A stretch of DNA of 64,000 bases from Calliopum simillimum. Lineage: Eukaryota; Arthropoda; Insecta; Diptera; Lauxaniidae. The notes under the pieces were generated by a model. The model had not been told where the DNA came from. It saw only the letters and a program-made list of their open reading frames with translations, and made no database searches. Each line of letters begins with the position of its first letter. Positions within the stretch are counted from its first letter, which is position 1. Shown here piece by piece: positions 13,801-60,235 of this stretch. Both the position numbers and the translations under genes were made by a program. Location of the stretch: the NCBI GenBank assembly GCA_951812925.1, contig OX638370.1, forward strand, positions 92,642,897-92,706,896, written 5' to 3'.

Positions 13801-16800
13801 TTGTACTAGTAATGAGGACCCTGTTCGTCGTTCAACTTATAGCATGTACGCGGAACGAAAGAGTCCGAAAAAGAAGAAAGCCAAATCTTATTCAAAATTA
13901 TCAGAGTTAGATAAAGAGGTACATTGTACATCAACTCTTAGATTATTATTATTTATATTGCTTTTAATTGTTTCTTACTTAGATCTGTCCTGATACTGGC
14001 CAACTAATTGACCCACAGCAATCATCATCGGATCTTGATACGCCACTTAGTATTAAAAAATTGAAATCAAAAGCAAAGTCACCCTATATACGCATACGCA
14101 CCAGTCCTAAGAAAACACGACCTAAAGACATACCTTTACTTGAACCAAAATCATTGGATCCAACTATACTTAAATCGCGCGAAGATGAAACTGATGAGCC
14201 AAAAAGTGCTCCAGCTACCGAGAAAATACAAAACGAGTACTCCAATGATTTAATCTTCGATTATCAGGATTTCAATACAAGCAGTGATGATGAATTTTCA
14301 ATTCTCGAAAAGTGTATACGTCAGTATGAGATTTTCTTTGAAGTTTATTTATCACGCAAAGTGCTGCAGATTAATCGTAACTCATCAGTTGATATTAAAA
14401 AATGTTCCATTAAAGTGCAAGTTGAGAAGGATACCATGCTCAATGTTGAAAATATATTTAAGAATGAACAAGTCTATGAAGATATTTGTCCAGAGCGTTT
14501 GTTGGAAATAGAAAAGTTATTCGAAACGCTGCGAGTTAATGTCGTCAGTCGTTCAAAACAATTGCACAGTTTACTAAGTCGTTCGCTGATAACAACTGCT
14601 TCTGGGGAATTTGCACCCATTGAGTCTGTCAGTGATTTCAGCGAATCTGAGTATATTGATTCTATTAATAACGTTGAAAAATTGGAAAACAATGCCAAAA
14701 ATCCGACATTGGATGAACACATTGAAAAAAGCGTAAATGCATTAATTAAATTGCGATTAAGCAACTCACTGCGCAATGCCGTTAAGCTGGCATCAAATCT
14801 TTTGGTAGAAATGTCCACTTTTCCGAATTGTAACAAAAATATTATATTAGATAGAAGTGGTAAGTATTATTTTCTATATATGGCTCAAAATCACCAAGGT
14901 GAGAATTTTGCTTCGGAAGCAAATAAATTACTAAAGCCATAATTTTATTGAGTTAATGAATATGACAAAACATTATAATTGTTTTGTTTTAATGGTACAT
15001 TGCATTATATATGCTAAAACTCAATTATATTCGATATTATTTGATAATATATACACGAAAAATCATTCCGGGAACGCGTCCCAAAGTGTAAAATTCAAAA
15101 TCAAATTTAAAAAAATCATATAGAGTAGAACGGGGCAATGTCGTGCACTCAACTTTGACATGCTCGTAAAGCCGTACATCTCAAGCGAATGCGACGAGTA
15201 AGCATCCGATCGAAAGATAATTTCGTTGGTTACATCCATGTGTAACAACATTTGTGTAGCGAGAAATTGTGTTTGTGTAAGTGAAGAAAAAAAAAAAAAA
15301 ATGTGCACGACGTTACCCCCCTCAAAATTTGTGGGGTAATGTCGTGCATTGTTTTCCGAGTATAGTAAAGGTACCAAAATGTGTGAGAAACGATAGGTAG
15401 TGGTTCTATTAGAGGAGATTTAGCATTATCATGTATTTATTCATTATTATACAAGTGTGAAGTACATAATATGTTGTGTAGAGTAGAACGGGGCAATGTC
15501 GTGCACTCAACTTTGACATGCTCGTAAAGCCATACATCTCAAGCGAATGCAACGAGTAAGCATCCGATCGAAAGATAATTTCATTGGTTACACCCATGTG
15601 TAACAACATTTGTGTAGCGAGAAATTGTGTTTGTGTAAGTGAATGTGCACGACATTACCCCAATGGTCGTTTTAAAGGTCAACTTCGATAACTCGGTGAA
15701 GCCCAAAATTTTTTTCCAAAACCAAATACTTCTTTTCTTTGGCAGGATATTTCGTTTCAGAAAACACTTACCTGGTATATTTTCCCGCAAGGAAAATTAT
15801 TTTTCTGACCCGATGAAAAAACACTTTTATCGTCCCGAAAGCGTGCGTTTTGAAAAAAAGGTTACTCTGTAGACACGAACTGGTGAAAATTGCTAGTATT
15901 ATATGCATAAGCTCAGTAGGTCAGCAGGGGCCTACCTTACGAACAGTTGGTAAATCATTCAATTCTTTGGGATAAAACAGCCAGTGCACGACATTACCCT
16001 CTGCATGACATTACCCCGTTCTACTCTAAATTTACCAATATTAAATAGATCAAGTAACCAATTAAGAGCAGTTTTTATCAAAGAATTATATTTTGGGAAA
16101 TATGCTAAAATATGTTGTCCGAGGGTTTGTGCATCAATTCAGGGAACGCAGTTGTAACTGGCGAAAAACTATTTAAAGTGAACGCATCCGCTATGCGCTA
16201 TTGCTCAGTCGAAAGAATAAAGGTAATTTAACCCACTGCCAAAGTGCTATTTGGCCAATAAGCTATTTTTCATTGGAAATTACTATTTTAATTCATAATT
16301 TATAGAGCGTACATCAATAGGGCGTCATTCCGGTAACGCATATATTTTTTTGAAATGGTGAAAAAGTACCTTTAAAAATATAAAGTTAATGTAGTACCAT
16401 AAAATATTTTACATTTATCACGTCAAACCACGACTCAAATTATAACTGTAAGAATAAAGCGCGCTTTTAGTTGAAATCGTCATTCCGGGAACGCTTATAT
16501 GATATGATGAAACGTTCCCGAAATGACGATGTCGTTCCCGAAATGACGGCTTACAGTTTTTCAATAACTAACTATGTGCTTCTTTGCTCAAATGCACCTC
16601 AAGAAAAAATAATTTGCATAATAAAGCAAATCAATTAAATAATTTCATTTAAGAACTTATACCTGATATTAATATTACATTTACATTAGGAAATTGATGT
16701 AACAAAATAAGAAACACCCTAGGTTTTTGCCAAAAATACGCTGCAAGAATCAACGTCAACCTAGTTTTCGTGCAAGGCATCGAAACGTCCTAGTTTTCGT

Positions 16801-19800
16801 GCAAGGCATCGAAACGTCCTAGTTTTCGTCCAAGAATTTTTGAAAACCTACTTTTCGTAGTAGAATTGAATCATCCTACTTTTCGTATCAAGCGTCGATA
16901 TGGAGGTCAAAATGTGTCGTTTAGTGATAAATTCGCTAAAATTCTGAATCTAATTTTTAATCATTGAGCTCTTAAGTCTTAAAAAGAATATGTGAGCAAA
17001 AAGAGTATATCGGACCTAGTTTCGGAGATATAGCCATCGAAAGATGCTATAAGTTGGGAACCCCTGAATGGATTTGGAAAATATTGGTGTCATATGAAAG
17101 GTATTTTGTTGTTATTGTAGCAACTTCAACTCCAGGGCTGTAAATTGAAAAAGATTAATCCTTTTACCTACTAGTAATTTGGGATGTGGGAAATAGAAAA
17201 CATGTCGGGCCTAGTCCAGAAGGCCCAGAAATTGGGCTACCTCTACTGGGCGGGACCATAGGTCAATCGTAGACAGGTTGGTGGGACGGAACGGACAGTT
17301 GAAAAGGTGGGAACTGTCGTGCGGACTTCCACTACATGATGGGCACCGATCCACGGTGCCCTCAACGATCCGGGCTCTGTAGCTCATCAAGATAAGTGAA
17401 TATCCTGAGCGGAGTTGAGCCAGTATGCACCTTGCCTCCCTCGAAAGTGATTTTTCACTAGGATTGATTTGTGGAGGGCGGCTATTGAGCACTTTATTAA
17501 GTGAAAGTGATTTAATGCCGTAGTAGCAAGATGCATATGCAGATCATTGAGGGCCTCGCGGACAGGCCCGGGCTCCCAAGAGTCAGGCAGGAAGTCTGCT
17601 ATGGCTTCCCTGTAGCACCTAAAATCCACCCTAATACACAAAATTTCAAAAAAGGTCATATCTCGAAAACTATGAATACAATTGAAAATATTCTCAAAAC
17701 ATTATAGGCTGTCAAAATACCTTTCATATGACACCAATATTTTACAAATCCATCCAGGGGTTCCCAACTTATAGCGGTTTTCATAGAAGATATATCCGGA
17801 TCTTCCGATGGCTATACCTCCGAAACTAGGTTCGAGATACCCTTTTTGATCACATATTCTTTTTAACGACTAAGGACTCAATGATAAAAAATTAGCTTCA
17901 GAATTTTAGCGAATTTATCACTAAACGACACATAACCTCCCTATGACCTTGAAAAATGTTTCTCAGGCGTTCTGAAAAAAAAAACGGACCTGGGATTCGG
18001 ATTCAGGACGTCAAAGTCCCTAGTAAACACATAGCCTGGTCAAAACGCCATGACATTTTTTATTTGTAAACCTGTGTAATTGAAATTGGGTACATCTATA
18101 AAGTGCGTCAGGATAAATAATTTTCAGTGAAAATGTGGGCGGTGCCACGCCCCCAAAGAAATTAATTCATCATATCTCTAAAAATATTTAACAGATATGG
18201 ATGAGATTTGGTATACCATATGTATTAAAAGTACCAAGACAAATAATGTCCATTAAAAAATTGGGCGGTACCACGCCCTTAAAAAATTTCGTCATATTTT
18301 TTAAAGTATTCAACGCATAAAGATGAAATTTGGGACATATATAAATTGCATCGGAACAATTTACATCCCTTAAAAAATTGTTGATGCCTCGCCCCCAGTA
18401 CAAGACGCTCACCGGGAAATGTTAGTTTTCATATAATAATTATGGAGCTGGAGAAAAAGTTAAGATAAGATCGTTCGGCAAAAGATGATTAATGCAGAGA
18501 GTATAGATATATAGAGTGCGTTTCACTCGAGTAGTTGCACTCGCTCGAAATTATCGTTACTATGGTCTCAAGTCGGTGAAAAATAGTACCTCTTGCGGCC
18601 AACGATAAAACTAAATCCTGTGCAGAATTTAGTGCAAAGATATGCGAGGATATTGTATAATGGTATATCCTACTTTCAGTTGCTCCTGCAACTGTTTGTT
18701 TTGACTATTTTCCTTTGTTGTTTAATATTTTTCGTTTTTAATTCCTTTCGCGTTTTCACGCAAGTGCAAGGATATACGAAGATATTGACTAATTGTATAT
18801 CTTCGTTTCATTTGCTCTTGCATTTTCATTTGTAACGGATTCGTAATGATTTCGGTACCGAAATCGAAAACATTTTCCGAATCTTCGTGTCGAATTCGTT
18901 ACGAATTCGGAACCTTTGGCTTGCTGGGAACCGACAAAAAATAAATTTTACAGTAGAAGCTTTTTCTGAATTTTCATTGCATAGTACAAAAGTCAAAATT
19001 GCTTTCCGTATAACTTCGTAATGCTAATTTTTACAGTTATGAAATTTGAAGGGAAGATGCGTATGCTCGCAAATTATCGATTTCTATCAAAAAACGAAAA
19101 TCTGAAATCGTGTCGGTTAAGTCTTTTTGGCGGTTAGGGCTCGATATGTTAAAATTGTGGGAGTTATTTAGTTGTTTTTTGTGCGTTATTTCCTACCGCC
19201 ATTTATTAATTAAATTATTTTGACAAATCAAAATAAATCTTTTATTTCAGAAAACGATATTCCAAGTTGGCTGAAAGTACTCTGTCTGGTTGCTTCTTAT
19301 ACTGAAAGTGATAAGGAATTGCAGTTGGCAACTATCGCGACACTTTTTGATTTAATAAGGTTAGTAAAGCATAACTAAATCATTGAATTTGTAACTACTT
19401 AAAAATGTTTTCAATTTTAGCTTGTTAAAATCTCAAATAGAACATACCACAAGCCCTGGCGTCACATTCGTTGTTATGTTGCCACTTTTAAAGTTTGGCC
19501 ATGTAAGTTTTATTGAAAATAAAACACGAGTTTTTCAGTTGGTGGCTTCGGTTTTATGGAACTATTTGGGTGAACCGTCAGTAGACCCGGTTCAGATAAC
19601 TTCATTGCTATATCAGCTACACAATTGCTTAGAAAGCGGTTTAGTTGAAACGGTAATTGGCAATCGGATGTATTCACGCACAATGCAACAACAGTTCGCT
19701 GCAGTCGATGCCTTGGCTAATAGCGAACATACTGCACAAGCTGCGCTCTGCAACTATCGTTACGATCGTGCAGCTGATATAAAATTGATTTGTGTCTCGC

Positions 19801-22800
19801 CATCTCATCCGGTTGAACGCAACGTTATAAATAACCTAAAAGAAAGTGAATCAAAAAGTTTCAAAAAATTCGAATTACTTTGGCACTTGGGTCGTGATAA
19901 ACAGCCTTCTAAAGGCTTTGAAAAAACCTTGCTTAAAGTGTTGGATACGCTCGGATTGCCGTACTACATGTCGTCACGTACTTTTGTGACCAAATGGTTG
20001 CAATCATCTTTGCTGCGTGGCGATCTTTCGCGGCTGATAAAGCCCCTATACAAAATTTTACTTTCGCCCAATTCATGCCGCATCGGTATTGTACATCTAC
20101 ATTTGGTACTTCAAAAAGAAGGAAATGGCGGTGATGCAACTGGCGCTTCTGTTGCTGGTGATGCAGCTGATAATGCAATTGCGGTGGCGGAAGAAGCTTT
20201 GGATCGTGATGTTTACGCTATTAGCTCGGAATATGGGAACATAAAATATCACATGGATGTTTCCAGCAATAAGAAACGCTCACCAATACGTTCATTTCAA
20301 AAGAAAATTTTCGGTGTAACGCTTAGTAGTAAAAATAAAACATCAAACTTTGTTAGTGACAAGACACCAATGCCAACAAGCGTTGTCGAAACGACACAAG
20401 ATGTGACATCTATTGGCTTAATTGTCAATCCTCTAGACAACTCACCGGATTTTGATGATGAGCCCGAAGTGGCAGAAAATGAGGTAGAATTAAGACAAGA
20501 CATTGAGGAAAAGCCAGCTCTTTATACTGAAGATGATCAAGGCTATGAGCATGATTATACAGATGATTCAGATAGCAGCGTTTTTGATTCAGAGTCTGAA
20601 AACCGTGAGACCAGTGTGGAAAAGGATGACAGTTTAACGATAAGCTCAAGTGCAGGTATGGACTTTGCAAAATATTTTTTAAGAATTAAACTAAACTTAA
20701 TCTAATTAATTACTAGGTGCATCGGTTAACTTAAAACGTTTTGTTGGCAATTGTGAGAGTGTCACTGAAATGCTTTCACAACATGAGCGCGCGAAAAATC
20801 GTAAAACCTACCGTTTGACTCGTGAAAAAACACCCGGCGAATCAAGTCTAACTTCGGCTACAGATGAGTCCTCTGTGCCACAAACAGCTGCTGTTGCAGC
20901 TGCTGCCAGTGAAGAAGAAGCTGCACATCCTGCGGATGAATATTTTAGTGGGAGTGCCAAAGCAGATACTAATTCCGTGGAAACTTTTGTTAAAGATTTG
21001 ATGGAACAAGTATCAACAACAAATGAGCCGCAGTCGCAACCACAACAAGAAGAAAAATCAACAAAAAAGAAACATCGTCGTCTACATACAACTTCAAAAC
21101 ACAAAAAATCGTCAAAGAAAACCCTATCATCATCCGATAAAAAACGCATGAGTTGCATCTCAAAAACATCAACTGATAGTAACAATAGCTATGGTGGTAT
21201 TGGCGGACCCGCTACGGAGAATAGTTTACATGAAGAACAACACATCAGTGATTCTGTTCATAGTGATGAGGATATATACGATGTTAAGTCTCAAACGGAA
21301 TCTGTTAAAACAACATCTGCTTCACATTCTGTATCGACAATAAATGTTGAAGAAAAACGGCGTTGCCTCAGTCTGGAAACAAGCAAGCCAAAATTAGAAT
21401 GGGAACTAACACAAGAAGCGCTAGAAAAGGGTAAACAAAATGTACAAATATTGCGGCAAAACGTTGCACAAACCAGTGGTGTTGAAAGTAAACGTTCATC
21501 TACAAAGAGCGGCAACTCAAGTGATTCGCGTAAATCTCGTTTGGATAAGGTAGGTTGGGTTAGATGTGCATGTCCAGTAAACAAAGGTTTATGGACTTAT
21601 CTTTCGAATACTTTTATTTCATTTATTCATTCCATCACTATGATTTTCTGTTTCGTTTCAGCAGAACTTTTTCCACACTCATATGCTGATTTACTTTGGT
21701 GTTTATGACACTAAACAAACTCTTTACGCATTTCAAACGTTGCGCAACATTATCGCCTGCGATACGCGCACTTTTCTGTGCCTCTCCATCACCACCTCAC
21801 TCTCCAGTGGTTCCATGAAGCAGCTGTTGATTCGCCATCGTAAAAGTATTTCTGGCAAAGGTTTTGCCGGCAGCATTACCAACACAGAATTTGCGCAAAG
21901 TTATCGAGGTTGCATGCATTTAGAGGTACTGGTTACTATTTGTTTGTACTATGCACGTGGGTACTTTCATCGTGAATCCAATGAAGGTTCTACAAGTGAG
22001 AAGCCAGTTAAGGATGACGTTGTCGGCAATTGTCGTGTACAACTGGAAAGCATTGAATTGCTAACACTGATCTGCAGTGAACTGATTGACATTGTAAAGG
22101 GCATGGGAAAAGGTTTAGCCTGCTATATTGCAGACTTAATGGCACGTTGTAAGCTGCAAAAAGTCATACTACACTGCTTGAATTCATCTGTAACTGCATA
22201 TGATCAAAAATTCGAAGGCGAGAACTTGGCAGAGCAAGTTTTAAATTTTAACAATCCGAACGATGAAAATCTTCATACTGAGTCGACACAAATACAACTC
22301 CTTAGACTTTTAATGGCAGTCATTAAGCTTGAATATGAAGTGGTTATATTGAAAAACGATGCCCCAACCAGTCAACAAACTAAAACTGATGTTGATGCTG
22401 GAAACATTTCACCTACGCGTCTTTCAAATATGTCCGTGGACACCGCTGCCGCTTATGTTAAATATCTGCCAAATTGCTTGATCAGCCAACAACCAATGTT
22501 CTTGGCTGCAGTGCTAAATGCGCTACAGGATGAGCGCTTGCGACATCTGCATCGCAACTGGACTGACTTAGTGACAGCGTCGCTTAATTGTTTTACATTA
22601 GGTTCGCTTACAAATATTGTAATAAGTGTTGTGCATCAGTTGTGTAACAACATTGATAAAATTGCCAAACTTCCATTGAAGGAACAATGTGGTTTCCCAC
22701 CAGACTATGTAGTATCACAATTGGAAGCCATTACAATACTATGTCACTACTGTCTGCTAGATAATACGCAACAAACAACGTTATCACATCTCTTTAATCA

Positions 22801-25800
22801 AGCGTATCCACAAACGAGCGTGTCCGTACAAAATTCTAACACTGGACAATTGTTGAACAATATCGTGCACTCGTTTCTTTCGACAGCTGCTGCATCAGCG
22901 CAAACAGAAGCACAGTCTCCACGTAATCCACAACTAATGGCCGCACGCAATGCCGTGCTCTCGCATTTGTCGCGCATTGTGGCTAGTGTTGCTGCCGTTT
23001 GGGACAGTGAATTAGGTCAAGTGCGTCAAGTAAAACAACAGTTAATGGAATTTCTATCACCAGTATCGCTACATCATGGTGCAAATTTCCTAGCAGCCGT
23101 TGCTGTAACATGGCAGGAACGTGGCGAACAACATCGCAAACGTTTAGCTTTTGAATTAAAGTTTTCGAAACTAAGTATTGCCGAACAATATCAACGTAAC
23201 TCAATGCCACAAGCTTGTGCCGAACAATTGAGTCTCGTGACTTTAGTTTCAAGTATACGCGTCATGCCAATGGATTCATTTGTGCAAACGCTACATCAAG
23301 TTGTGAAAACACCACCACCTATACATCGACCACCTGCTTACCTTACCATTGAGGTAAGCGCATTAGAGCTGTTTTACTTTTATATGAAGTCGGCACCAGC
23401 ACCACAACTGGGCGATTCTTGGAGTTCGCTCTTGGCATTGTTGAGAGATGGCTTAAATTTGTCACCGCCTGCACAGTTTGCACTCTTGATGCTGTTAAAT
23501 GAGTTTGTGCAGCGATGCCCACAGATGCCGTTCCAGGTATGTAAAATAATTTTAAAACAACGCATTGAACATAATGGGCCTTATGAACTTATCGAGCAAT
23601 TTCCTCTCAAGAATATATTCCCTTCTCGAGCGGGAGCATTTGCAATCGTAAATATTTCGAGAATGAAATCCAAGCAAGGATACTTTTTTCTTCCAATTTT
23701 CGCTAAAAAAAACTACTATGCAGCCCTGGTATTTTTCATTTGATTTTGACAGCTAAGCTTAAAAAAAAAGATAAACATCTCAACTTTATTAAAAACAATC
23801 CAAACAAAGTATGGTGGCGGTTAAACTCGAGGTCAACTAAAGTAATCTCCAAACCGGTATAAATTGGAAACCCTTGGATGGATTTCAAAAAAAGTAGTGC
23901 CATATGTAATGCATTTTAATAAGGTTAAAAATTAACGGTCAAAAGTTTTTAATATTTCATACATAATTTATTTAGGCATCGAATTCCCTGTTAAAAAATT
24001 GGAGAATAAATCCGTACAACAAATGTTAATATTCACTCCCATATTATTGCCGATAACCTTATTTTTCAATGAACTTTTTCCTTCCACAAAAAATTTTTTT
24101 TTTTGCGATTGCATACCAGGGTGTCCGAGAAAAAATGCTCAAGAATGTTTATTTATAATAAGCCCAATATTGTCATTTTGCGATTTTTTTAGTTCAGTTT
24201 TAACGATTATTATATTAAAAAAAATTTAATGTATTAACTTTGATTTTATTTCACACAGGATAAAAAAGATATACGTGACTTACATGATGTTACCTCACGT
24301 TTAGTCGACTCGCTATCGAATGTCGCTGGCTCTTGTCTGGAACAAACGACCTGGCTACGTCGCAATCTTGCCGTTAAAGAAGATTATTCCCCTGTCACAC
24401 CTGATGGCAGCATTAGAGACAGCAACATTACCGGACACCAGCAGTATTCAGTGCAGGCACAAAGCGTTATCGCTGCTATTTTAGCAAATCTACTTGATGT
24501 TGCCTATGGATCGCAAGAAAAAGATAAAGTTGTCACGATTATCACAACTTTACTCTATAATATTACACCGTATCTGAAAAATCATACTGCGCGGAATATA
24601 CCCTCATTTTATGCATGTTCCAGTCTATTAGCTAGTTTAAGCGGCTACCAGTATACGCGCAAGGCATGGCGTAAAGATATGTTAGATCTACTATTGGATA
24701 ATTCTTTCTTTCAAATGGATATATCTTGTTTACCTTTCTGGAAGCAAATTATGGACAGTTTAATGACTTATGACAATACAACATTCCGTGAGCTAATGAG
24801 TAGAGTTTCATTGACACAAACTGGTAGCTTAAACATTTTTACTTCACGTGAACAAGAATACGAACAGCGTGCAATGTTATTGAAACGTCTTGCATTTGTT
24901 ATATACTGCAGTGAATTTGATCAGTTTCACAAATATATGCCTGAAATTCAAGGTAAATATTGTAATATTTAATAAGATTTAATATTATTTATTAAAATAT
25001 TTTATCAAATAACATAGAACAATTGGCAAATAGTTTGCGTTTACTATCAATGGTACCATCTGTACAGGCTGCCGTCTTTCTTTGCTTTCGTGTGCTATTG
25101 CTGCGTATGTCACCAGACCATGTCACATCAATGTGGCCAATTATTATTGCTGAAATGGTGCAAGTATTCTTAGCGATGGAACAAGAACTCAAATCTGATT
25201 GTGAAGACTTGAGGTAAGTTTGCTATTATCTATTTGTACCGAAAAAAAAACAATAGTGTTTGTTTGTAAACATGCCATAAATTGCATTTTGTTTAAATCA
25301 TTAGGAATGCAACAGCTCACAGTAGGCAAGTTGAAAGATATTTCATTGCTCTTGAGTTTTCGTATAAGAAAATAGAAAAAACAAAACAAAAAAAATAAAA
25401 TTTAATAAATTTCGTTTTCTATTCACAGTCAACAGATGCGTCTACTCTCCGGCATGGATGTTTCATGGTCATCAAATTCATCAAGCAATGGTTTTACCTC
25501 TCAAAATCACTTGGTATACTGGCGTTCGGTGCAGCTTGAAGCTTCGAAACTTTTAGAATTGGGCTGTGTGCTGCCTGCTACAAATTTGCCGCATTTTCAA
25601 ATGTATCGTTGGGCTTTTGTAGGCACAGAATTTGATGTTCACGAAGAGGTACCAATTTCGAATGGAACAAGTGCTGATGATCAAACAGTTGCATCATTGC
25701 CATCAACACTTTATGTACCGCATATACGTCGTATTGCACGTCTAATGGATATGAAATATGCAGTGCATTCTCCTGTAAGTTACTGAATATGTATTGAATT

Positions 25801-29541: not shown

Positions 29542-32500
29542 TTAAACTACGACATTATGTATCATCTGGGAATCCTTATTTTTCAATTGATTGAAGTATG
29601 ACCAGACAACGTGAGTGCAATAAGCGAACAATGCTGTAAAAATTGAAATAAAACAATTAAAATTGCAACTGTAGATATGTATGATATATAGCACTTACCT
29701 AATATACATATATATTCCACTAAAATGAGGAAAGTATTGTCAAAATTGGACGAAGCACGGTAGCCTCCATAGTTAAAGATAACACCAAAAAAGGCAATGG
29801 GCCAACCGATAAAAAATAATACGGCAGTTACAAGCCAAGCACAAACAAACCATTTACTTTCCTGAAATTTAAAAAAAAAAAAAACATTTAAAAATTTAAT
29901 CTGAACATAATATATGTACGTATTTTAATTCTAATATAAATATATATATGAATAAAAACCAAGCTGAAAGAGAACTACACAAGCACTTATATTGTTTACC
30001 CCTGGGATCACATTCGTAAGAATGAAATACCTCAACGGGAATTAATGAAGCTGCTTCCAATAAGAGCACAATAGAGGCACATCTCTGGTAGCATACAAAA
30101 TTTTTCAAATTCTATTTTTTTTTTATTGCTTATAAAAGTTATAAAAATAAAATTCAAAAATCTGCCAAAAGTTTCAGAAAAAAAGTAATTTTTGTGAAAT
30201 GGAACTTTAAATTTTGAAAAACTTCCACGGAAGCGTATTTCATATGCTTCCAAATGTGTGCTTCCACGGAAGCGCCTTTGAAGCGTATTTCATGTGCTTC
30301 TGAAGATGTGCATCTCCGCTAGGACATGCTGTGTAAAAAAAGATAAGCAGTGAGAACAGCACTGGTAGCAGCTTTTTGCTTCCCTAGAAGCGCAACTGAA
30401 GTCGTTTCAATGCGCTTCCGTTTCCCGTTGGGACGCCCGAAATAACATTGTTTACACTTTTAAATAAAAATAACCCGAATTTTTGACAGAGAATATAGGA
30501 AAAAACTAAAGATGAGAAAATGTTATTCGTATTATTGGCAGTGGCGGCTATAGCCAAGCCAGCGGAGACAGTAATTTGAATGAAATTATGTATATTCTAA
30601 AACTAAAGGGAATGTTGGTTTATTAACTTTGAAATTTATTGGAAATTTGTAAAAAAAAAATTTTAACGGAAACCTACAAATGGTAGGGTAAGGGAGGGAA
30701 ATATGGACTACGTGGGTAATATGGACCACACGGTTATTTTCCACTGCGTACATAGGATTAACCGTTATTCATGTTCAAACTTAACGCTAATACCTAGAGC
30801 TTATAGTAGCGCGATTTTAGCGTTCGGTGAAGTCGCATGTTCCTGTAAAGTTGATTTTTCTAAAAAAAAGATCAGTGATAATTTTTTTCTAGTGAGTATA
30901 TTTCATTATTTCACTTTAAAGACATCGCGTTTTTAAATAAATGGTTAATTATATAAAATCAGTGAATACTATTTATTATTTATGAGCATAAATTAGTTCA
31001 TTAACCACAAGACTTTTTGATAAAAAACCACATATTTCACCAACACGTGCTGTGGGTAATATGGACCACCAAAGAAAAAAGCCTCAAAAACAAATGTATT
31101 TATCATCTTTTTCAGATGGGGAATCTAGCTGCAGATTTCATGACGATTCTGATGGTCATTATTTATGATTCGTTAACTACAAAGGAAAAAAATGATAAAA
31201 AATGCATATAATGAAATACCCTTTACTCAGAAGATCGACGTGGCGAATTTTGGGTTGAATGTGTAATCTGACGTTCTTGGAGTCATGAAATGTGACGGAT
31301 GTGGAAGTGACATTTTTATATGCAACTTCTGTACCAAATAAACGTGTGGGGCAATATGGACTATATAGTTCATATAACACTACACTTTTTTTTATCGTCA
31401 TTTTGAGAATTTTCAGTTTTTTAATTTTTTTTCTTTATCCCGATGAGATATTTATCTAAAAATTAATCAGAATAAAGGTAAATTGTTTCCTTTAATGAAT
31501 GGCATAAAATTAATTGTTTTATTTTATGTTTTTTGAGTTTTATTTAAAAAAGAAAGATTGGTGGTCCATATTTCCCTCCCTTACCCTAGTTAATATTTTG
31601 TATCATTTCGGAACACAACCTAAAACGTTGTTTGGTATCGCAGAATTATGACACGGTGCATCTGAAGCTTTCCTAACCGAGAAAAAGCTGTCAGTAGCAT
31701 ATAAGTACACACGGTGGTTTTTAAAAAATTTTAGCTTTTTGAAATACCACCCGCGATTTTTTTCAGGGATAATGTTGGGGGACCCTTCTAGTATCTAAAT
31801 CCGCAAACCGCGAAATCGAGCGTCCAGCCGTTTTTTTTTTTCGACATTTTAGTTTTTTTACCGATTTTTGTGTATGTCTCGGTGTTTATATACATATTAT
31901 GTACGCATATATATGTATATACGTACATATATATACTTGTATATGTATATATATGTAATATATATATATGGAATACATACATACATACATATAAAAGGTA
32001 TCCTTTCCGCACCATTTATTTTTAAAAAAAATTGGTTTTTTCGTATTTAAGAAAAACACAAACAAAAACCGGAAACAGAAATAGTCATTTCAGATGTGAT
32101 TTTTGATGCCTAATCCGATTCCGGTCTTAGAATTTCTCTATTACGTCTGAACTTTGAGATATCCTTACATATATGTTTAAAGGACACCATTTTTTTTCCT
32201 ATTTTTGAAGTTATATAACAAGATAAGGTAATATTATGCCGTAAAATCTGGTATGACAGTTAATAGCCCTAGTTTTTTCCTTGAAAACTCAATCAAACCG
32301 ATAACCATATCTTTTATTTTGTCGGAGATATCTTTACCTAAAAAGTTAAAAAAGTGCAAAAACACGATTTTTGGCTATATTGGATGTTATATGCAGGACA
32401 CACAAAATTTTTTTGGGAATTTCTATTACCAGAAACATTTGGTACTTTCTTTTGGCTTTAAATTGAGCTATCAAATGTTTATCTGCAATATTTCTCTGCA

Positions 32501-35018
32501 AAGTTATGTTAACTTTAAAATCACACCATGAAACTCAAAGCGAAAAATCTCGGTTTTCGGCTATATTTGAGGTTGTATACATTACGGACAAAATTCGTCT
32601 GCTCTTTTTTACTAACCGACACATTTCACACCATTCTTTATCTTCAAAATGAGCTAACAAGTGGTCTCTTGTAATTGTTTTCTAAAAAGTTATGACTATT
32701 TTAAGACGACATGTTGCAGCAATATAAGGAATACTCGTACACTGTGAGTTTGCACTCCATAATGTAATTTTTAAATGGTCATAACTTTGTGGAAAATAAT
32801 CACAAGAGACCTCTTGATAGCTCATTTTGAAGATAAAGAATGGTGTTAAATGTGTCGGTTAGTAAAAAAGAGCAGACGAATTTCGTCCGTACTGTATACA
32901 ACCTCAAATATAGCCGAAAACTGAGATTTTTCGCTTTGAGTTTCATGGTGTGATTTTAAAGTTAACATAACTTTGCAGAGAAATATTGCAGATAAACATT
33001 TGATAGCTCAATTTAAAGCCAAAAGAAAGTACCAAATGTTTCTGGTAATAGAAATTCCCAAAAAAATTTTGTGTGTCCTGCATATAACATCCAATATAGC
33101 CAAAAATCGTATTTTTAAACTTTTTTAACTTTTTAGGTAAAGATATCTCCGACAAAATAAAAGATATCGTTATGAGTTTGATTGAGTTTTCAAGGAAAAA
33201 ACTAGGGCTATTAACTGTCATACCAGATTTTACGGCATAATATTACCTTATCTTGTTATATAACTTCAAAAATAGGAAAAAAAATGGTGTCCTTTAAACA
33301 TATATGTAAGCATATCTCAAAGTCCAGACGTAATAGAGCAATTCTAATACCGGAATCGGATTAAGCAACAAAAATCACATCTGGAATGACTATTTTTGTT
33401 TCCGGTTTTTGTTTGTGTTTTTCTTAAATACGATAAAACCGATTTTTTTTAAAAATAAATGGTGCGGAAACGATACCTTTTATATGTATGTATGTATGTA
33501 GTCCATATGTATATATTACATATATATACATATACAAGTATATATATGTACGTATATACATATATATGTGTACATAATATGTATATAAGCACCGAGACAT
33601 ACTCAAAAATCGGTAAAAAAACTAAAATGTCGAAAAAAAAACGGCTGGACGTTCGATTTCGCGGTTTGCGGATTTAGATACTAGAAAGGTCCCCCAACAT
33701 TATCTCTGAAAAAAATCGCGGGTGGTATTTCGAAAAGTTAAAATTTTTTTTAAAACCACCGTGTACATAATTTAAATAGCAAACAGTATATGGCCCATCC
33801 TTTACATAATCTTAAGTCAAGGTTCATTTTTTTTTTTCTTTGTTTCATATCAGTCCTAAACAGTTTATGTTACAACTAAAGCTGGGCAATTATGATGGGA
33901 ATAATTATGATGCTTAAATCGACCCGGTCTAATTTTTATTATGTAAATTAATTTTTAATTAAACTGATATACTTTGATTGAACAATTAAAAATTAATTAT
34001 AAAAAATTATCTGCAGAAATTTGGTTCTACTTTTGAAATATTTCATCAACAACGTATAGCAATAAGATGAATAGCTCGCTGTTTGATTTTCGGTAGATCA
34101 AGGCTATTCAGATTAGCACTACGATAAGACGATAAGTTAGTTGGTGCTTATTATTTTTAATTCAGGAGCTATTTAATGCATACTTATCATAAAACTTCAA
34201 AACATTAAGCGCAAAAAGGCATAGCAACATTTCATTGTGCATCAACTTAGAAAGTAGCCATTTCATTGATTGATCACCTTTTCCACATACTCGTAATGTA
34301 ATCAAATGTTCAAGTAAACTTTCCATTAAAACAGAGCGCAGCCAATTCACATTATGACATTACTTTTGCCACATCTGGCTTCCCATTTTGACAAATTAAT
34401 TTTATTACAATACAACTCTGGTAAAAATTTTGAACTCACTCTTAAGGCGCCAAACAGAAGTGCTGCATTTCCGCAGACAACAATGATGAAACTCACAATA
34501 CTGGTGCTGTGAGTAAGATCTGCAAAATATTCACAATAATTAATAGACAAAATTAAACGAATAACTTAAAATCTTCAGTCTTTTGGGGTCTTGCTATCGC
34601 GTCACGAATGATGAAATCGGTAAAAATATCAAGAATATTTAAATGCTTGAACAATGCTACAAATATGGCATGCATGTATTCAAAAATCAAGTTATTTGTT
34701 AATGGATTTGTTGTGGATATCAAAATTTGTTTTAGTGACATCATCCACTGATGATTTTTAAGCCATATGCACGCGGTTCTAGCACTCATCTATAAAAAGA
34801 TTTGATGTACAAAAATTAACTGCAAGAAATAATGCGTCTTTTTTAATGGTCCACTTGTATGTATGTTTGTATTATTGCGTTGCGTTCTTTTACTTACAAC
34901 TTGGCCGAATTATTACATTCAAAGCAATAGAGATCAGATAAAATGCGGCAATAGAAATGCAGGCATTCCTAAGGGTAATACAACCACATGCCTTGTCGGC
35001 GATCAAACTAATTGCCAT
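29542..35018 (-). CDS. small four-transmembrane protein, paralogue A
   Basis: Four minus-strand exons: 34898-35018, 34440-34519, 29699-29861, 29542-29633, with GT-AG introns of 378, 4578 and 65 nt and phases 1, 0, 1. Joined they give 151 residues starting MAISLIADKACGC and ending at TAA 29542. Hydropathy shows four membrane segments: about 20-37, 47-66, 71-96 (with FFIGWPIAFFGVIFNYG) and 110-132. The short cytosol-like tail is polar. A Cys-rich N-terminus (residues 11, 13, 20) could be lipid-modified. I do not recognise the family with certainty; insect DUF4728-like or MARVEL-like tetraspanners are the nearest in layout. About 97 of 152 aligned positions equal paralogue B, with all splice phases conserved, so both should be functional. 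The large intron 2 holds two transposons. Confidence 0.85.
30684..31588. mobile_element. TIR element with GGGTAAGGGAGGG ends
   Basis: The ends TAGGGTAAGGGAGGGAAATA and its complement (TATTTCCCTCCCTTACCCTA) define 905 bp, with TA at both edges. The end-associated word GTGGGTAATATGGACCAC recurs internally at about 30711 and 31049, and as a variant near 31346. No transposase is present. It lies in intron 2 of the four-TM gene A. Confidence 0.72.
31710..33763. mobile_element. 2-kb near-perfect palindromic (foldback) element, CAC termini
   Basis: The two halves are reverse complements of each other over about 1 kb each, with a small unpaired centre near 32705-32770. The termini are CACGGTGGTTTTTA and its complement. 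Both flanks are TACA (31706-31709 and 33764-33767), a 4-bp target duplication. CAC ends with a 4-bp duplication fit the Chapaev group of CMC transposons; Transib (5 bp) fits less well. ORFs in the arms are mirror images and not conserved proteins. It sits in intron 2 of gene A and would fold in its pre-mRNA. Confidence 0.85.
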
Positions 35019-55418: not shown

Positions 55419-57226
55419 AGCCGTGTTTTTTTTTTTTTTTTTGACGCGTATATGGGCAAATCCGAAAATAATCTCCTCTTATATGACCCAGTTTTTAAAA
55501 AAAAAAAATTTTCATGTACAATAACCAAATGTGGTGGAATTTATTCGTAGACGTATGAGCTGCAATTTCCAATAGGCGAACAAAAAATTTTCGACCTGAG
55601 AGGGTGTCAGGAGGTCGTTTTATCTGAAAATTTTGGGAAAATCGAGATTTTCGGTACTATACGGGAGAGCACATACTTCAGAAGTAGTAGATATGTTACG
55701 GGGCACCTTTCCAAATATTCTGAAGTAAAATTCAAAAAAATCGTATGTGGGTCGCGGCGACAAAATGGGTTAAAAAGTCTAAATCACTCATTACGGCCAC
55801 ATAACAGGTCCTAAAATTCTGAAAAAATTCAAGCAAGATCCTTGATAAAAAATAAATCGACTTTGCTTATAATATTTTTTGATCTAAGCGCCCCCTGCCG
55901 AGTAAAAAGTTAAAAACGCTAGTTTTTGGGTAAAAAATGCGATTATTGGCGATATGCGATCGAGCACACCATAGCGACACATAGGGTAAGATAGCGGGAT
56001 ATCTAACAAATATTCTGGAGTAATATTCAGAAAAATCGTATGTGGGTCGTGGCGACAAAATGGGTTAAAAAGTCTAAATCACTCATTACGGCCACGTAAC
56101 AGGTCCTAAAATTCTGAAAAAAATCAAGCTAATTCCTTGATAGAAAATAAAACGAATTTGTTCAAGATGTTTTTTTAATTTGAGCGCCCCCTGCCGAGTA
56201 AAAAATTAAAAAACCTAATTTTTGGGTAAAAAATGCGATTATTGGCGATATGCGATCGAGCACACCATAGCTACACATAGCAAGATAGCGGGATATCTAA
56301 CAAACATTCTGGAGTAAAACTCAAAAAAATCCTATGTGGGTTGTGGCGCCAGAATGGGTTAAAAAGTTTAAATCGCTCATTACGGCCAAGTAACAGGTCC
56401 TAAAATTCTGAAAAAAATCAAGCAAATTCCTTGAGAAAAAATAAATCGACTTTTTTTATGATGTTTCTTTAATTTGAGCCCCTCATTTGGAGCAAAAAAT
56501 GAAAAAAACTCAAAATTTCGCATTTCGCCAAAAATCACGTTTTTTACCCAAAAATTAGCGTTTTTAATTTTTTACTCGGCAGGGGGCGCTTAAATTAAAA
56601 AAACATCATAAACAAATTCGCTTTACTTTATATCAAGGAATTTGCTTGATTTTTTTCAGAATTTTAGGACCTGTTATGTGGCCGTAATGAGTGATTTAAA
56701 CTTTTTAACCCATTTTGTCGCCACGACCCACATACGATTTTTCTGAATTTTACTCCAGAATATTTGTTAGATATCCCGCTATCTTACCCTATGTGTCGCT
56801 ATGGTGTGCTCGATCGCATATCGCCAATAATCGCATTTTTTACCAAAAATTTAGCGTTTTTAATTTTTTACTCGGCAGGGGGCGCTTAGATTATAAAATA
56901 TTATAAGCAAAGTCGATTTATTTTTTATCAAGAAATTTGCTTGATTTTTTTCAGAATTTTAGGACCTGTTATGTGGCCGTAATGAGTGATTTAGACTTTT
57001 TAACCCATTTTGTCGCCGCGACCCACATACGATTTTTTTGAATTTTACTTCAGAATATTTGGAAAGGTGCCCCGTAACATATCTACTACTTCTGAAGTAT
57101 GTGCTCTCCCGTATAGTACCGAAAATCTCGATTTTCCCAAAATTTTCAGATAAAACGACCTCCTGACACCCCCTCAGGTCGAAAATTACCACAATTGTAT
57201 ATACGCGTCAAAAGAAACACGGCTAA
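55419..57226. mobile_element. 1.8-kb foldback element with tandem units in its arms
   Basis: The outer inverted ends carry TAGCCGTGTTT and TGACGCGTATA. The inner arms start TTTTCGACCTGAG(A/G)GGGTGTC on both sides. The left arm holds three direct units of about 295 bp (CACTCATTACGGCCA ending near 55800, 56095 and 56390), each with AAGATAGCGGGATATCTAAC or a variant. The right arm holds inverted counterparts. The centre is near 56.5 kb. It is non-coding. Confidence 0.8.
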
Positions 57227-57524
57227 TAATTCGGAGTGATGATAACTATTTTCATATACATACGAAGAGTATCTGTGATAAAACTGTTGAATTTGTGGCT
57301 CCTAAAATTCGAGAGAAACAACGGAACATTCAATCCATCAAGAACGAGTGACAGATTGGTCCAGTTTTTTGTCCAGAAATTAATGCTATTAATTAAGACT
57401 ATTTTCAGCGGTGAAAAAATGTTCCTTATTTTAAAAAAACAACCCCTTATATCCTTAATTACAAAGATTGTAGGGAAATATTAAAATCGGATACTTTTTT
57501 CTATGAAAAGTATGTTGTACATTA

Positions 57525-57635
57525 GTAGATACTTTTTTTAAGAATTTTTAAGTGCGTTACTTAATGACATTTTATATATAGAAAATTGTAACATAGTATA
57601 TAAGTAACACACTTAAAAATTCTTAAAAAAAGTTA
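57525..57635. repeat. hairpin repeat of about 110 bp
   Basis: TTTTTTAAGAATTTTTAAGT at about 57532 is complementary to ACTTAAAAATTCTTAAAAAA at about 57613. The stem extends through GTTACT and AGTAAC around an AT-rich loop. It is a MITE-like hairpin. Confidence 0.6.
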
Positions 57636-57799
57636 TTTGGGAGAACACGCCCTGATAAGGTGGAAACACCTGCAATCGGTATTGAATTTGTTCCAAAGGA
57701 ACAACTATACCAAATATCAATAAATAACACAAACAACAATTATGATATATCAATACGTATTAACACACAAACAAAACTGGCAAAAGTCGGCTTCGCAGC

Positions 57800-57900
57800 A
57801 GGGCAAGGCTGGTGTAGTGGTAACGACTGCTGCTACCAACCTGGAGATCCTTGGTTCGACTCCCGCCCAGACCAAAAACCACAAAAAGTTTTCAAACTTG
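57800..57900 (+). ncRNA. tRNA-like SINE head with pol III A and B boxes
   Basis: TGGTGTAGTGGTAACG (57810-57825) fits the tRNA A box with D-loop. GGTTCGACTCC (57853-57863) fits the B box with T-loop, at a normal spacing of about 30 nt. The surrounding sequence (CCTGGAGATCC, then CCGCCCAGACCA) does not form a convincing acceptor stem or anticodon arm, so I call it a tRNA-derived SINE head rather than a working tRNA gene. An A-rich stretch follows. A hammerhead ribozyme motif lies about 100 bp downstream in the same orientation. Confidence 0.6.
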
Positions 57901-57957
57901 CAATTTTTCAATTATAATTAATTTAGTAAAATAAATATAATTATAATTACAACAAAA

Positions 57958-58004
57958 ATAGTCTGATGAGTCTTTGTGGCGAAAGACGAAACATATGTCA
58001 CTAT
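57958..58004 (+). ncRNA. type I hammerhead self-cleaving ribozyme
   Basis: All conserved parts are present in order: stem I strand ATAGT (57958-57962), core CTGATGA (57963-57969), stem II GTCTTT with loop GTGGCG and AAAGAC (57970-57987), core GAAA (57988-57991), a self-complementary stem III ACATATGT (57991-57998), cleavage-site C at 57999, and stem I strand ACTAT (58000-58004) pairing exactly with the first. Cleavage is expected after C57999. A stem III without a real loop is typical of type I hammerheads in SINE-like, Penelope-like and retrozyme elements, which often act as dimers. The tRNA-like head upstream suggests pol III transcription. Activity is inferred, not shown. Confidence 0.85.
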
Positions 58005-58194
58005 AGCCGTGTTTTTAATCCGTTCCTTGATTTGTCATAATTATGTGTTAGAAAAATGCATAGATAGATTTATATGTAAATCGATCTTTGCAAATATATG
58101 ACTAAAAGTTCAATTAAAAAATCAATTTTTTAGTAGATACTTTCATTTTAAAACACAACTCAAGCTAATATTTAAGTCATTTAAAAAAATAATA

Positions 58195-58993: not shown

Positions 58994-60235
58994 CTAGGTT
59001 GATCAATAAGTTTTGCGGTTCGATAAGAAAAACACAATTTTATGGTTTGAAATACACTTTATTATTTAGTATAGTCTCCTTGAACATCAATACACTTGTT
59101 CCAACGAGATTCCAATTTATAAATTCCATCCCTGAAGTGAGAATCTGGAAGGGCTGCAAAATACGCTTCCACAGCTGTTATGACCTCATCATTTGATGAA
59201 AAACGCTTTCCACACATGAATTTGTTTAGGTCTGGAAACGGTGGATGTTCCAACAATTCGAACTTTAATTCATGGATTTCAGCCATTGTCAAAATGCACT
59301 TGTGACATGGTGCATTGTCCTGATGAATAATAATTTTTTTCTTCTGCAAACTGCGCCTTTTTTCACGAATTTTTTCCTTCAGCTGGTCTAAAAGGTTGCA
59401 ATAATACTCAGAATTTATTATTTTAGTAGTTTGCAAGTAATCCACAATCAAAATTCCTTTCGCATCCCAAAAAAACTGATGCTAACACCTTCTTGGCTGA
59501 TTTCAAAGCCAAAGAACCAGGTTCACACCACTCTTTCGCCTATTGTTTTAATTCTGGAACATGATGATAGACCCAAGTCTCATCCATAGTGATGAATCGA
59601 CGCACAAAATCCTCTTTATCCTTTCGAAAACGCTCTAAATGTTGCTGAGAAAGTCGCATTCGAATGTGTTTTTGTTCCATTGTTAGCGAATGTGGCACCC
59701 ATTGTGCACACAGCTTTCTGAAACCCAATACTTCAGTCAAAATACTGTTTACACTTCCCAATGAGATGCCTAGAGCTTCTACTAAATCTCTTTCACTCAT
59801 TCGATGATTTTCCAAATCGATATCCTGTATTTTTTCTACGATTTCTGGTGTTGTTGCTGTTTTTGGACGTCCTTGATGTGGATCGTCTTCAAGGCTTGTA
59901 CGACCACGTTTAAATTTAGCATACCATCTTTCTACTGTACTAATTAAAGGCAAAGGGTTCTTATACACTTTCAACATTCGTTCATAAATTTCCTTTGCTT
60001 TAATACCTTCCAAAAATAAAAATTCAATCACTGCATGATACTTGATTTTTTGCATTGACAAAAAAATACTGTGATACGTCGATACTAAGTGGATTGTAAA
60101 CAAAGAATGAATTGACACATTGAAACAAGACATCACATACGTTCATATGAGAGTGTACCAAAATAAAAAAAAAAAAATTTAGACTATTAGCAACGCCCTC
60201 TCCTATCGAACCGCAAAACTTATTGAACAATTTAG
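58994..60235 (-). mobile_element. mariner transposon, 1242 bp, nested
   Basis: The inverted ends share CAATAAGTTTTGCGGTTCGA and are flanked by TA (58992-58993 and 60236-60237), the mariner target. The length is normal for the family. It encodes a broken transposase on the minus strand and is inserted in the hAT-like element. Confidence 0.93.
59062..60055 (-). pseudogene. mariner transposase, inactivated
   Basis: Read from 60055 downwards, the N-terminal half has the paired helix-turn-helix region (STVERWYAKFKRGRTSLED, then GRPKTATTPE) and the first catalytic Asp in TMDETW. A TAG stop in the following Gln-rich stretch (about 59537) and a frameshift near 59470, in a run of T (minus strand), break the frame. 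The C-terminal half resumes with the second catalytic Asp in HQDNAPCH. Directly after EHPPF the text jumps to PDLNKFMCGKRF: the segment that normally carries the third catalytic Asp of the DD34D triad and the residues after it is missing. Three independent lesions make it non-functional. The family catalyses cut-and-paste transposition. Confidence 0.92.

What the first reader, a model, noticed from the sequence alone, without database searches (positions are those of the whole stretch)
57958..58004. Complete type I hammerhead ribozyme motif in fly intergenic DNA
Seen directly: core CTGATGA and GAAA, a perfectly paired 6-bp stem II (GTCTTT/AAAGAC, loop GTGGCG), a 4-bp self-complementary stem III (ACATATGT), cleavage-site C57999, and a 5-bp stem I (ATAGT/ACTAT). 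Family knowledge: type I hammerheads with short palindromic stem III occur in Schistosoma Sm-alpha SINE-like repeats, Penelope-like elements and animal retrozymes and often cleave as dimers. Inference: this marks a ribozyme-bearing retroelement or circular-RNA-producing repeat in this fly.
Basis: partly seen in the sequence, partly recalled or inferred. Interest (0 to 1): 0.92.

Follow-up and report, generated by a model that had tools for sequence, protein, structure and literature searches.

The report
Self-cutting RNA in jumping DNA
The spot holds a hammerhead (a short RNA motif that can cut itself, judged here by sequence only) inside one of well over a thousand copies of a small protein-less jumping element whose insertion scars look like those of Penelope-like retroelements, which bears on the open question of what moves such elements in animals.

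Summary
The motif is real. 57958-58004 is a complete type I hammerhead layout; the exact 47-mer occurs 1350 times in this 690 Mb genome, reversed control 0. It sits in a non-coding, AT-rich repeat of about 545 bp. The window copy is a 594-bp insertion (57536-58129) between perfect 14-bp target-site duplications: a short inverted arm plus one full forward unit.

The insertion anatomy matches that published for Penelope-like elements (PLEs). In 16 of 22 mapped insertions two arms meet head to head; in 15 of these one arm runs to about unit position 573, past an AC-rich hairpin (the PLE 'tail'), and the other stops at or before 538, typically about 529. GIY-YIG matches (51) exist in the genome, and one group of them has a reduced hammerhead 435-500 bp downstream at 6 of 7 loci.

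Best reading: a non-autonomous, retrozyme-like element moved in trans by PLE machinery. PLE mobilisation of animal retrozymes is already proposed in print (PMC7229834); here it gains junction-level evidence. Cleavage, circular RNA and the identity of the helper were not shown. A tRNA-like segment (57796-57875) is present; its role is unclear.

The parts
57522..57535 (.). left target-site duplication TTAGTAGATACTTT
   Evidence: perfect 14-bp direct repeat with 58130-58143, flush with both insertion edges
57536..57600 (-). short inverted arm: 3' end of a unit plus the 'tail' of the next unit, in reverse; 57589-57600 is an unassigned junction
   Evidence: tandem-reference positions 523-578 map reversed to 57531-57588, the last ~5 nt being shared with the duplication; inverted repeat 57531-57563 / 57601-57633, 97%
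57548..57564 (-). hairpin of the tail (UUAAGU-loop-ACUUAA), read on the minus strand; loop AACGC here, AACAC in most fetched copies
   Evidence: fold; both hairpin arms intact in 20 of 22 element matches printed there (my count)
57601..58129 (+). full forward repeat unit (529 bp; tandem period about 545 bp because of a spacer of about 16 bp absent from this copy's 3' end)
57796..57875 (+). tRNA-like segment, A-box-like 57810-57820 and B-box-like 57853-57863
   Evidence: sequence; GC 58.8% against 32.3% for the unit; not called by ARAGORN nor by Rfam up to E 10
57958..58004 (+). type I hammerhead ribozyme motif, predicted cleavage between C57999 and A58000
57976..57981 (+). loop II GUGGCG, can pair UGGC with GCCG in 58005-58011
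   Evidence: duplex -5.5 kcal/mol
57991..57998 (+). palindromic stem III ACATATGT: 2 bp plus loop in a monomer, 8 bp between two copies
   Evidence: duplex -7.0 kcal/mol
58005..58011 (+). AGCCGTG, candidate loop/bulge I facing loop II; 1 change in 220 letters among fetched copies
58130..58143 (.). right target-site duplication TTAGTAGATACTTT

Best explanation
The window carries one copy of an abundant non-autonomous retroelement: a non-coding unit of about 545 nt with a canonical-core type I hammerhead, partly arranged in head-to-tail multimers, and inserted by Penelope-like (RT plus GIY-YIG endonuclease) machinery in trans. Shown by sequence: copy number, insertion anatomy in 22 insertions, GIY-YIG matches and a PLE-type hammerhead in the same genome. 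Inferred: tandem transcripts self-cleave after C57999, probably helped by two neighbouring hammerheads sharing an 8-bp stem III or by a loop I-loop II contact; unit-length RNA is released and may be circularised by a host ligase; the PLE protein binds the RNA 3' of the hammerhead and starts reverse transcription at two internal sites either side of the AC-rich hairpin, one from each nicked target strand; the two cDNAs are joined head to head and the staggered cut yields the 11-16 bp duplication. Copying more than one unit in a row requires uncleaved multimer or circular RNA.
For: Copies: 1807 core matches and 1350 perfect 47-mers, controls 0.

Duplications: 16 of 21 insertions tested have a repeat >= 11 nt near both edges, against 9 of 420 mismatched flank pairs, the longest of which is 16 nt. 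Two of the 16 (L022, L044) are A-rich and weak; the L037/L038 pair was left out; L026 shows only 10 nt here though a wider look finds 14.

Two arms: 16 of 22 insertions (window included; L037/L038, identical neighbours, counted once) have two head-to-head arms. In 15 of 16 one arm ends at 568-583 (tail) and the other at 475-538; the 16th (L031) ends at 559 and 525 (chance of >= 15 of 16 under 0.5 is 0.00026). [quoted passage not shown] Here the hairpin lies between the two usual end points, which lie about 130 and 174 nt after the cleavage site.

Helper candidates: 51 GIY-YIG matches. In a group that I picked by score and profile range (7 loci), 6 have a CUGAUGAG...GAAACGUC hammerhead starting 435-500 bp downstream on the same strand; that hammerhead also occurs in head-to-head pairs.

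Common template: pieces within one insertion differ at 58 of 3516 letters against 3.9% between insertions (0 of 5000 label shuffles as low); L034 has three identical pieces. Of seven arrays of >= 3 units that I picked out of the listings, five have one exact period, yet periods differ between arrays, 543-568.
Against: No PLE gene was found joined to this unit. Of 5 GIY-YIG places on C1 below 62.15 Mb none lies within 10 kb of a listed hammerhead of this family (nearest 10.9 kb; the listings are partial above 49.3 Mb). By the listing one further GIY-YIG (C1:72463139, minus) lies 3.2 kb from a six-unit array on the other strand, which I could not look into. 800 bp downstream of two other GIY-YIG loci show no significant similarity to the unit. 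I did not check that the GIY-YIG frames also encode an RT. The ribozyme's own fold is not the energy minimum, and the Rfam score is below cut-off. No arm ends at the cleavage site (unit 399/400) among the ends mapped, so self-cleaved linear RNA leaves no visible trace. In the anole PLE the ribozyme is dispensable for insertion in vitro (PMC11167929). The sample is small, 21 regions of one chromosome plus the window, and chosen for an intact hammerhead.
Confidence: 0.78

Rival explanations
1. The unit is the pseudo-LTR of an autonomous Penelope-like element, and the copies seen are solo or tandem pLTRs left by truncation and ORF loss rather than an independent non-autonomous family.
For: In the anole PLE the hammerhead lies at the pLTR-ORF junction (PMC11167929); an ATG inside the core (57966) opens a 24-codon frame; the distance from cleavage site to cDNA ends is of the same order as in that PLE; one GIY-YIG match lies 3.2 kb from an array, on the other strand.
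Against: In the 5 of 22 insertions with more than one forward unit the units are separated by about 16-19 bp, with no room for a frame; arrays of 3-6 units run at periods of 543-568 bp; none of 5 GIY-YIG places on C1 below 62.15 Mb has a listed copy within 10 kb; the two GIY-YIG loci sampled have unrelated downstream sequence. The flanks of the copies were not searched for RT frames.
Confidence: 0.12
2. A tRNA-derived SINE (pol III transcribed, LINE-mobilised) that happens to contain a hammerhead, like Sm-alpha of schistosomes.
For: A- and B-box-like sequences at 57810 and 57853; an older relative, L015, keeps a tRNA-like segment upstream of the hammerhead.
Against: The tRNA-like part is the least conserved block (6.7% changes); runs of T4 and T5 at 57889 and 57904 would be expected to stop pol III before the hammerhead; the window copy ends at its duplication without an A-rich or microsatellite tail; regular two-armed insertions with one tail are not a LINE/SINE habit as far as I know (recalled).
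Confidence: 0.06
3. A MITE or foldback DNA transposon that carries the motif by chance.
For: Inverted repeats at the 5' end and target duplications.
Against: Inner breakpoints vary from copy to copy while the outer ends cluster at two places and are asymmetric; head-to-tail units; duplication length varies 11-16.
Confidence: 0.02
4. The motif is a decayed or inactive ribozyme, kept only because the family expanded recently.
For: MFE fold is not the hammerhead; one fetched copy (L023) lacks stem III; stem III (4.8%, mostly gaps of one or two copies) and the 3' strand of stem I (2.6%) change as much as or more than neighbours; blocks 34-120 and 412-440 are as conserved as the ribozyme (0.55%, 0.75%); 405-451 has nearly as many exact 47-mers (1313 against 1350).
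Against: No change in the seven core letters, but the fetching pattern forced most of those columns; unforced columns of the stem I 5' strand (0.67%) and loop I (0.45%) are among the least changed. Exact 47-mers fall to 976 at 452-498 although that part is nearer the fixed 3' end; subfamily variants may explain part of it.
Confidence: 0.25

Closest known systems
Metazoan non-LTR retrozymes (PMC7229834; passages, one section)
   Same: Non-coding, AT-rich tandem repeats with a type I hammerhead, many dispersed copies, duplications longer than 4 bp, coexisting with PLEs; weak stem III as in the amphibian ones
   Different: Unit about 545 nt rather than 170-400; tRNA-like segment; mapped junctions show PLE-type two-armed insertion with a tail; circular RNA not shown here
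Penelope-like elements (PMC3846280 passages; PMC11167929 main-text section)
   Same: Head-to-head inverted arms, tail on one arm, AT-rich duplications (84% AT in 15 that I selected; the window is 66% AT), AC-rich hairpin between the two cDNA ends, hammerhead upstream of them
   Different: No RT/GIY-YIG frame; canonical CUGAUGA core and an 8-nt palindromic stem III instead of the ACGU stem of the PLE-type hammerhead found here
Sm-alpha SINE-like repeats of Schistosoma (PMC8490949, passages)
   Same: Short repeat with a type I hammerhead; called SINE-like
   Different: Different host; I did not compare sequences; a pol III promoter in Sm-alpha is recalled, not from a call

Membership tests
Type I hammerhead ribozyme | CUGANGA and GAAA core with an NUH cleavage triplet | tested here: met
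   GUC at 57997-57999
Type I hammerhead ribozyme | three helices, open end in stem I | tested here: met
   stem III only as a palindrome; the hammerhead is not the MFE fold of 57945-58020
Type I hammerhead ribozyme | loop I-loop II tertiary contact | tested here: inconclusive
   possible 4-bp UGGC/GCCG pairing; no independent covariation
Type I hammerhead ribozyme | Rfam gathering score (a detection rule, not a defining property) | tested here: not met
   one search had no working positive control
Type I hammerhead ribozyme | RNA self-cleavage | not testable with these tools
   needs bench work
Metazoan non-LTR retrozyme | non-coding, low-GC units with type I hammerhead, in tandem, with duplications longer than 4 bp | tested here: met
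   GC 32.3%, longest ATG frame 59 aa; duplications; more than one forward unit in 5 of 22 insertions and arrays
Metazoan non-LTR retrozyme | unit about 170-400 nt (a description of known cases) | tested here: not met
   about 545 nt
Metazoan non-LTR retrozyme | circular RNA in tissues | not testable with these tools
   no RNA data
Penelope-like insertion (mobilised by PLE machinery) | head-to-head arms with a tail on one arm and a target duplication | tested here: met
   16 of 22 two-armed, 15 of 16 with one clear tail; duplications at 16 of 21
Penelope-like insertion (mobilised by PLE machinery) | 3' RNA segment shared with an autonomous PLE of the same genome | tested here: inconclusive
   two GIY-YIG loci compared, no similarity; the others could not be fetched
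Autonomous Penelope-like element | RT plus GIY-YIG frame | tested here: not met
   no such frame in the unit; GIY-YIG elsewhere in the genome
tRNA-derived SINE | pol III A and B boxes, tRNA-related head | tested here: inconclusive
   box-like sequences, no ARAGORN or Rfam call, poorly conserved

The most novel reading that the evidence does not exclude
Animal retrozymes are Penelope parasites. The hammerhead turns tandem transcripts into unit circles, the PLE protein reverse-transcribes those circles around more than one lap from two internal start sites flanking an AC-rich hairpin, and the two cDNAs are welded head to head. This family would record all of these steps in its junctions.
Probability: 0.45. 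Interest if true: 0.78.

Novelty: new variant of a known kind. Interest (0 to 1): 0.63.

Why it matters
A 2020 review says that the repeats of metazoan retrozymes show no conserved motif from which the mobilising retrotransposon could be deduced, and that they seem to lack promoters (PMC7761336 section 9); the research paper of the same year names PLEs as a strong candidate on the ground of shared type I hammerheads, tandem copies and coexistence (PMC7229834, passage). Here the junctions of individual insertions carry the PLE signature, including two end points like the two reverse-transcription start sites of the anole PLE. With over a thousand exact copies of the ribozyme in one chromosome-scale assembly, template topology (linear or circular) and the role of the ribozyme become directly testable.

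Tried and rejected
Chance motif: rejected. Rfam as the arbiter: insensitive here. DNA search of 57940-58030 returned 0 candidates, not even the window itself (the tool says it skips common words), so it says nothing. Single-sequence folding: uninformative or against. Pol III SINE as the mobilisation route: not favoured. Cleaved linear RNA as template: no arm ends at 399/400. L046 has a further 68.8% match that the 86% filter dropped; I counted L046 as one-armed. Within the family, changes in stem I were unpaired, not compensatory. Literature: searches pairing hammerheads or retrozymes with insect, Diptera, fly or Calliphora listed no paper that I recognised as describing a dipteran case; they cover only the held open-access library, and PMC4209133 and PMC5785218, the key papers on PLE hammerheads, are not held.

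Full report
OBSERVATION. The hammerhead described at 57958-58004 is present letter by letter. A 150 Mb simulation with the window's dinucleotides gave 6 loose hammerheads and none as well paired as this one; a still looser scan gave 1 with both stems >= 5 bp in 60 simulated windows. In the window's own assembly (690 Mb, 334 contigs) the core pattern CTGATGAGTC-N12-GACGAAAC occurs 1807 times and the exact 47-mer 1350 times; reversed patterns occur 0 times. Rfam does not reach its gathering score for any family in the window; the best match near by is Hammerhead_3, 22.7 of 48.5 bits. The genome-wide Rfam search rang nowhere, controls included, so it shows nothing.

THE ELEMENT. Comparing 30 fetched copies (21 merged regions of chromosome C1) with the window shows a unit of 529 bp (57601-58129), repeated in some insertions head to tail with a spacer of about 16-19 bp, hence a period of about 545. 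The window copy is a 594-bp insertion between perfect 14-bp duplications TTAGTAGATACTTT (57522-57535, 58130-58143). Its left part, 57536-57588, is the end of a unit plus the start of the next, in reverse; then comes one full forward unit. Unit GC is 32.3%, the longest ATG frame 59 codons. A GC-rich tRNA-like stretch (57796-57875) has A- and B-box-like sequences but is not called as a tRNA and is the fastest changing block (6.7%).

INSERTION ANATOMY. I took the first 30 places listed plus the window; L037 and L038 are identical neighbours and count once, giving 22 insertions. Sixteen have two arms joined head to head, six have one arm (L046 among them; a 68.8% match beside it was dropped by the identity filter). 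In 15 of the 16 one arm ends at tandem position 568-583 and the other at 475-538, 8 of these 15 at 526-530 (11 of 15 by the alignment); in L031 the ends are 559 and 525. Of the six one-armed copies one ends in a tail (L022, 572) and five at 529-540. The stretch between the two usual ends holds a hairpin UUAAGU-AACAC-ACUUAA, both arms intact in 20 of 22 element matches printed. Duplications of >= 11 nt are found at 16 of 21 insertions tested (L037/L038 left out) against 9 of 420 mismatched flank pairs. Inner joints differ from copy to copy. [quoted passage not shown] In the anole PLE both target strands are cut and extended, reverse transcription starts inside the RNA at an AC-rich stem-loop 111-118 nt into the ORF, and the tail is the stretch between the two observed start sites (PMC11167929).

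HELPER CANDIDATES. GIY-YIG (PF01541) matches 51 places (150 of 209 candidates were scored; some frames are 550-841 codons long; an RT domain was not looked for, and the strongest hit may be a cellular gene). A second hammerhead family, CUGAUGAG-GUCAAC-GAUUU-GUUGAC-GAAACGUC, starts 435-500 bp downstream on the same strand at 6 of 7 loci of one GIY-YIG group that I picked by score and profile range (for two loci the start is reckoned). Its stem III is only ACGU in 24 of 25 matches; reduced hammerheads without a proper helix III are what is reported for PLEs (PMC6155905 and PMC7761336, passages). Downstream of two further GIY-YIG loci there is a CUGAUGAU...CGAAAU motif and no significant similarity to our unit. 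A third family, CUGAUGAG-GUGUAU...AUAUAC-GAAAC with a G-U / A-U variant, also occurs in head-to-head pairs, and a fourth, CUGAUGA-GGAUAUGUCC-GAAAC, makes up 39 of the 100 listed places by my count (257 matches in all, some of them variants of the main family, against 20 in the control). Stem II is thus kept paired with different letters in different families. No GIY-YIG gene was found joined to our unit: of 5 GIY-YIG places on C1 below 62.15 Mb none has a listed copy within 10 kb, the nearest being 10.9 kb away (above 49.3 Mb only exact 47-mers are listed). One GIY-YIG further on (C1:72463139, minus) lies 3.2 kb from a six-unit array on the plus strand; I could not fetch it.

TEMPLATE. Pieces within one insertion differ at 58 of 3516 aligned letters, pieces of different insertions at 3.9%; none of 5000 label shuffles is as low. 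Seven arrays of three or more units that I picked out of the listings have equal periods within five of the seven (for example 547 five times), while periods differ between arrays, 543-568. A forward arm such as L048 covers nearly two units. The templates were therefore multimers or circles. Circles would explain uniform periods, but unequal exchange could too.

RIBOZYME. Stem III is an 8-nt palindrome, 2 bp plus loop in a monomer and 8 bp (-7.0 kcal/mol) between two copies, and loop II can pair with AGCCGUG after stem I (-5.5 kcal/mol). The free-energy minimum is another fold. Exact 47-mers number 1350 for the ribozyme, 1313 for 405-451 and 976 for 452-498 in the form seen in L035, although parts nearer the 3' end should be present in more copies; subfamily variants may lower the last figure. 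Among fetched copies loop I and the 5' strand of stem I change little (0.45%, 0.67%), but stem III (4.8%) and the 3' strand of stem I (2.6%) do not stand out, and blocks 34-120 and 412-440 are as conserved as the ribozyme. The pattern used to fetch loci forced most core columns, so conservation of the core itself is not tested. No mapped arm ends at the cleavage site.

VERDICT. A real, abundant, non-autonomous hammerhead retroelement with the insertion signature of Penelope-like machinery. Retrozymes and the idea that PLEs move them are in print (PMC7229834); the junction evidence, the unit size and the tRNA-like segment are the new parts as far as the searches go, and those cover only the held library.

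Noticed in passing
window 12188-23740 (+): Exons of a DOP1 (Dopey) gene: PF04118, PF24597 and PF24601 match strongly.
   Followed up: partly
window 59062-60142 (-): A mariner-type transposase in two separate frames (PF17906, PF01359), about 0.9 kb downstream of the insertion.
   Followed up: partly
G000, many places: A further hammerhead-like family CTGATGA-GGATATGTCC-GAAAC with a 3-bp stem II makes up 39 of 100 listed places (my count); its host element is unknown.
   Followed up: no
G000 C1:72457168-72463396: A six-unit array of the element (plus strand) lies 3.2 kb from a GIY-YIG match on the minus strand.
   Followed up: no
L052 278-308, L053 136-165: Downstream of two GIY-YIG loci the hammerhead-like core has one extra nucleotide before stem II (CUGAUGAU); the family also has one (CUGAUGAG), unlike the window's motif.
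   Followed up: partly
window 57963-58040: The ATG inside the hammerhead core opens a 24-codon frame ending at 58040; in the anole PLE the ORF also starts at the hammerhead. Possibly a relic of a PLE start.
   Followed up: partly
window 5426-63424: A repeat family with copies spaced by 142 bp recurs in several clusters and both orientations.
   Followed up: no
window 31833-33641 and 55586-57187: Two long inverted repeats, 887-nt arms at 95% and 670-nt arms at 96%.
   Followed up: no
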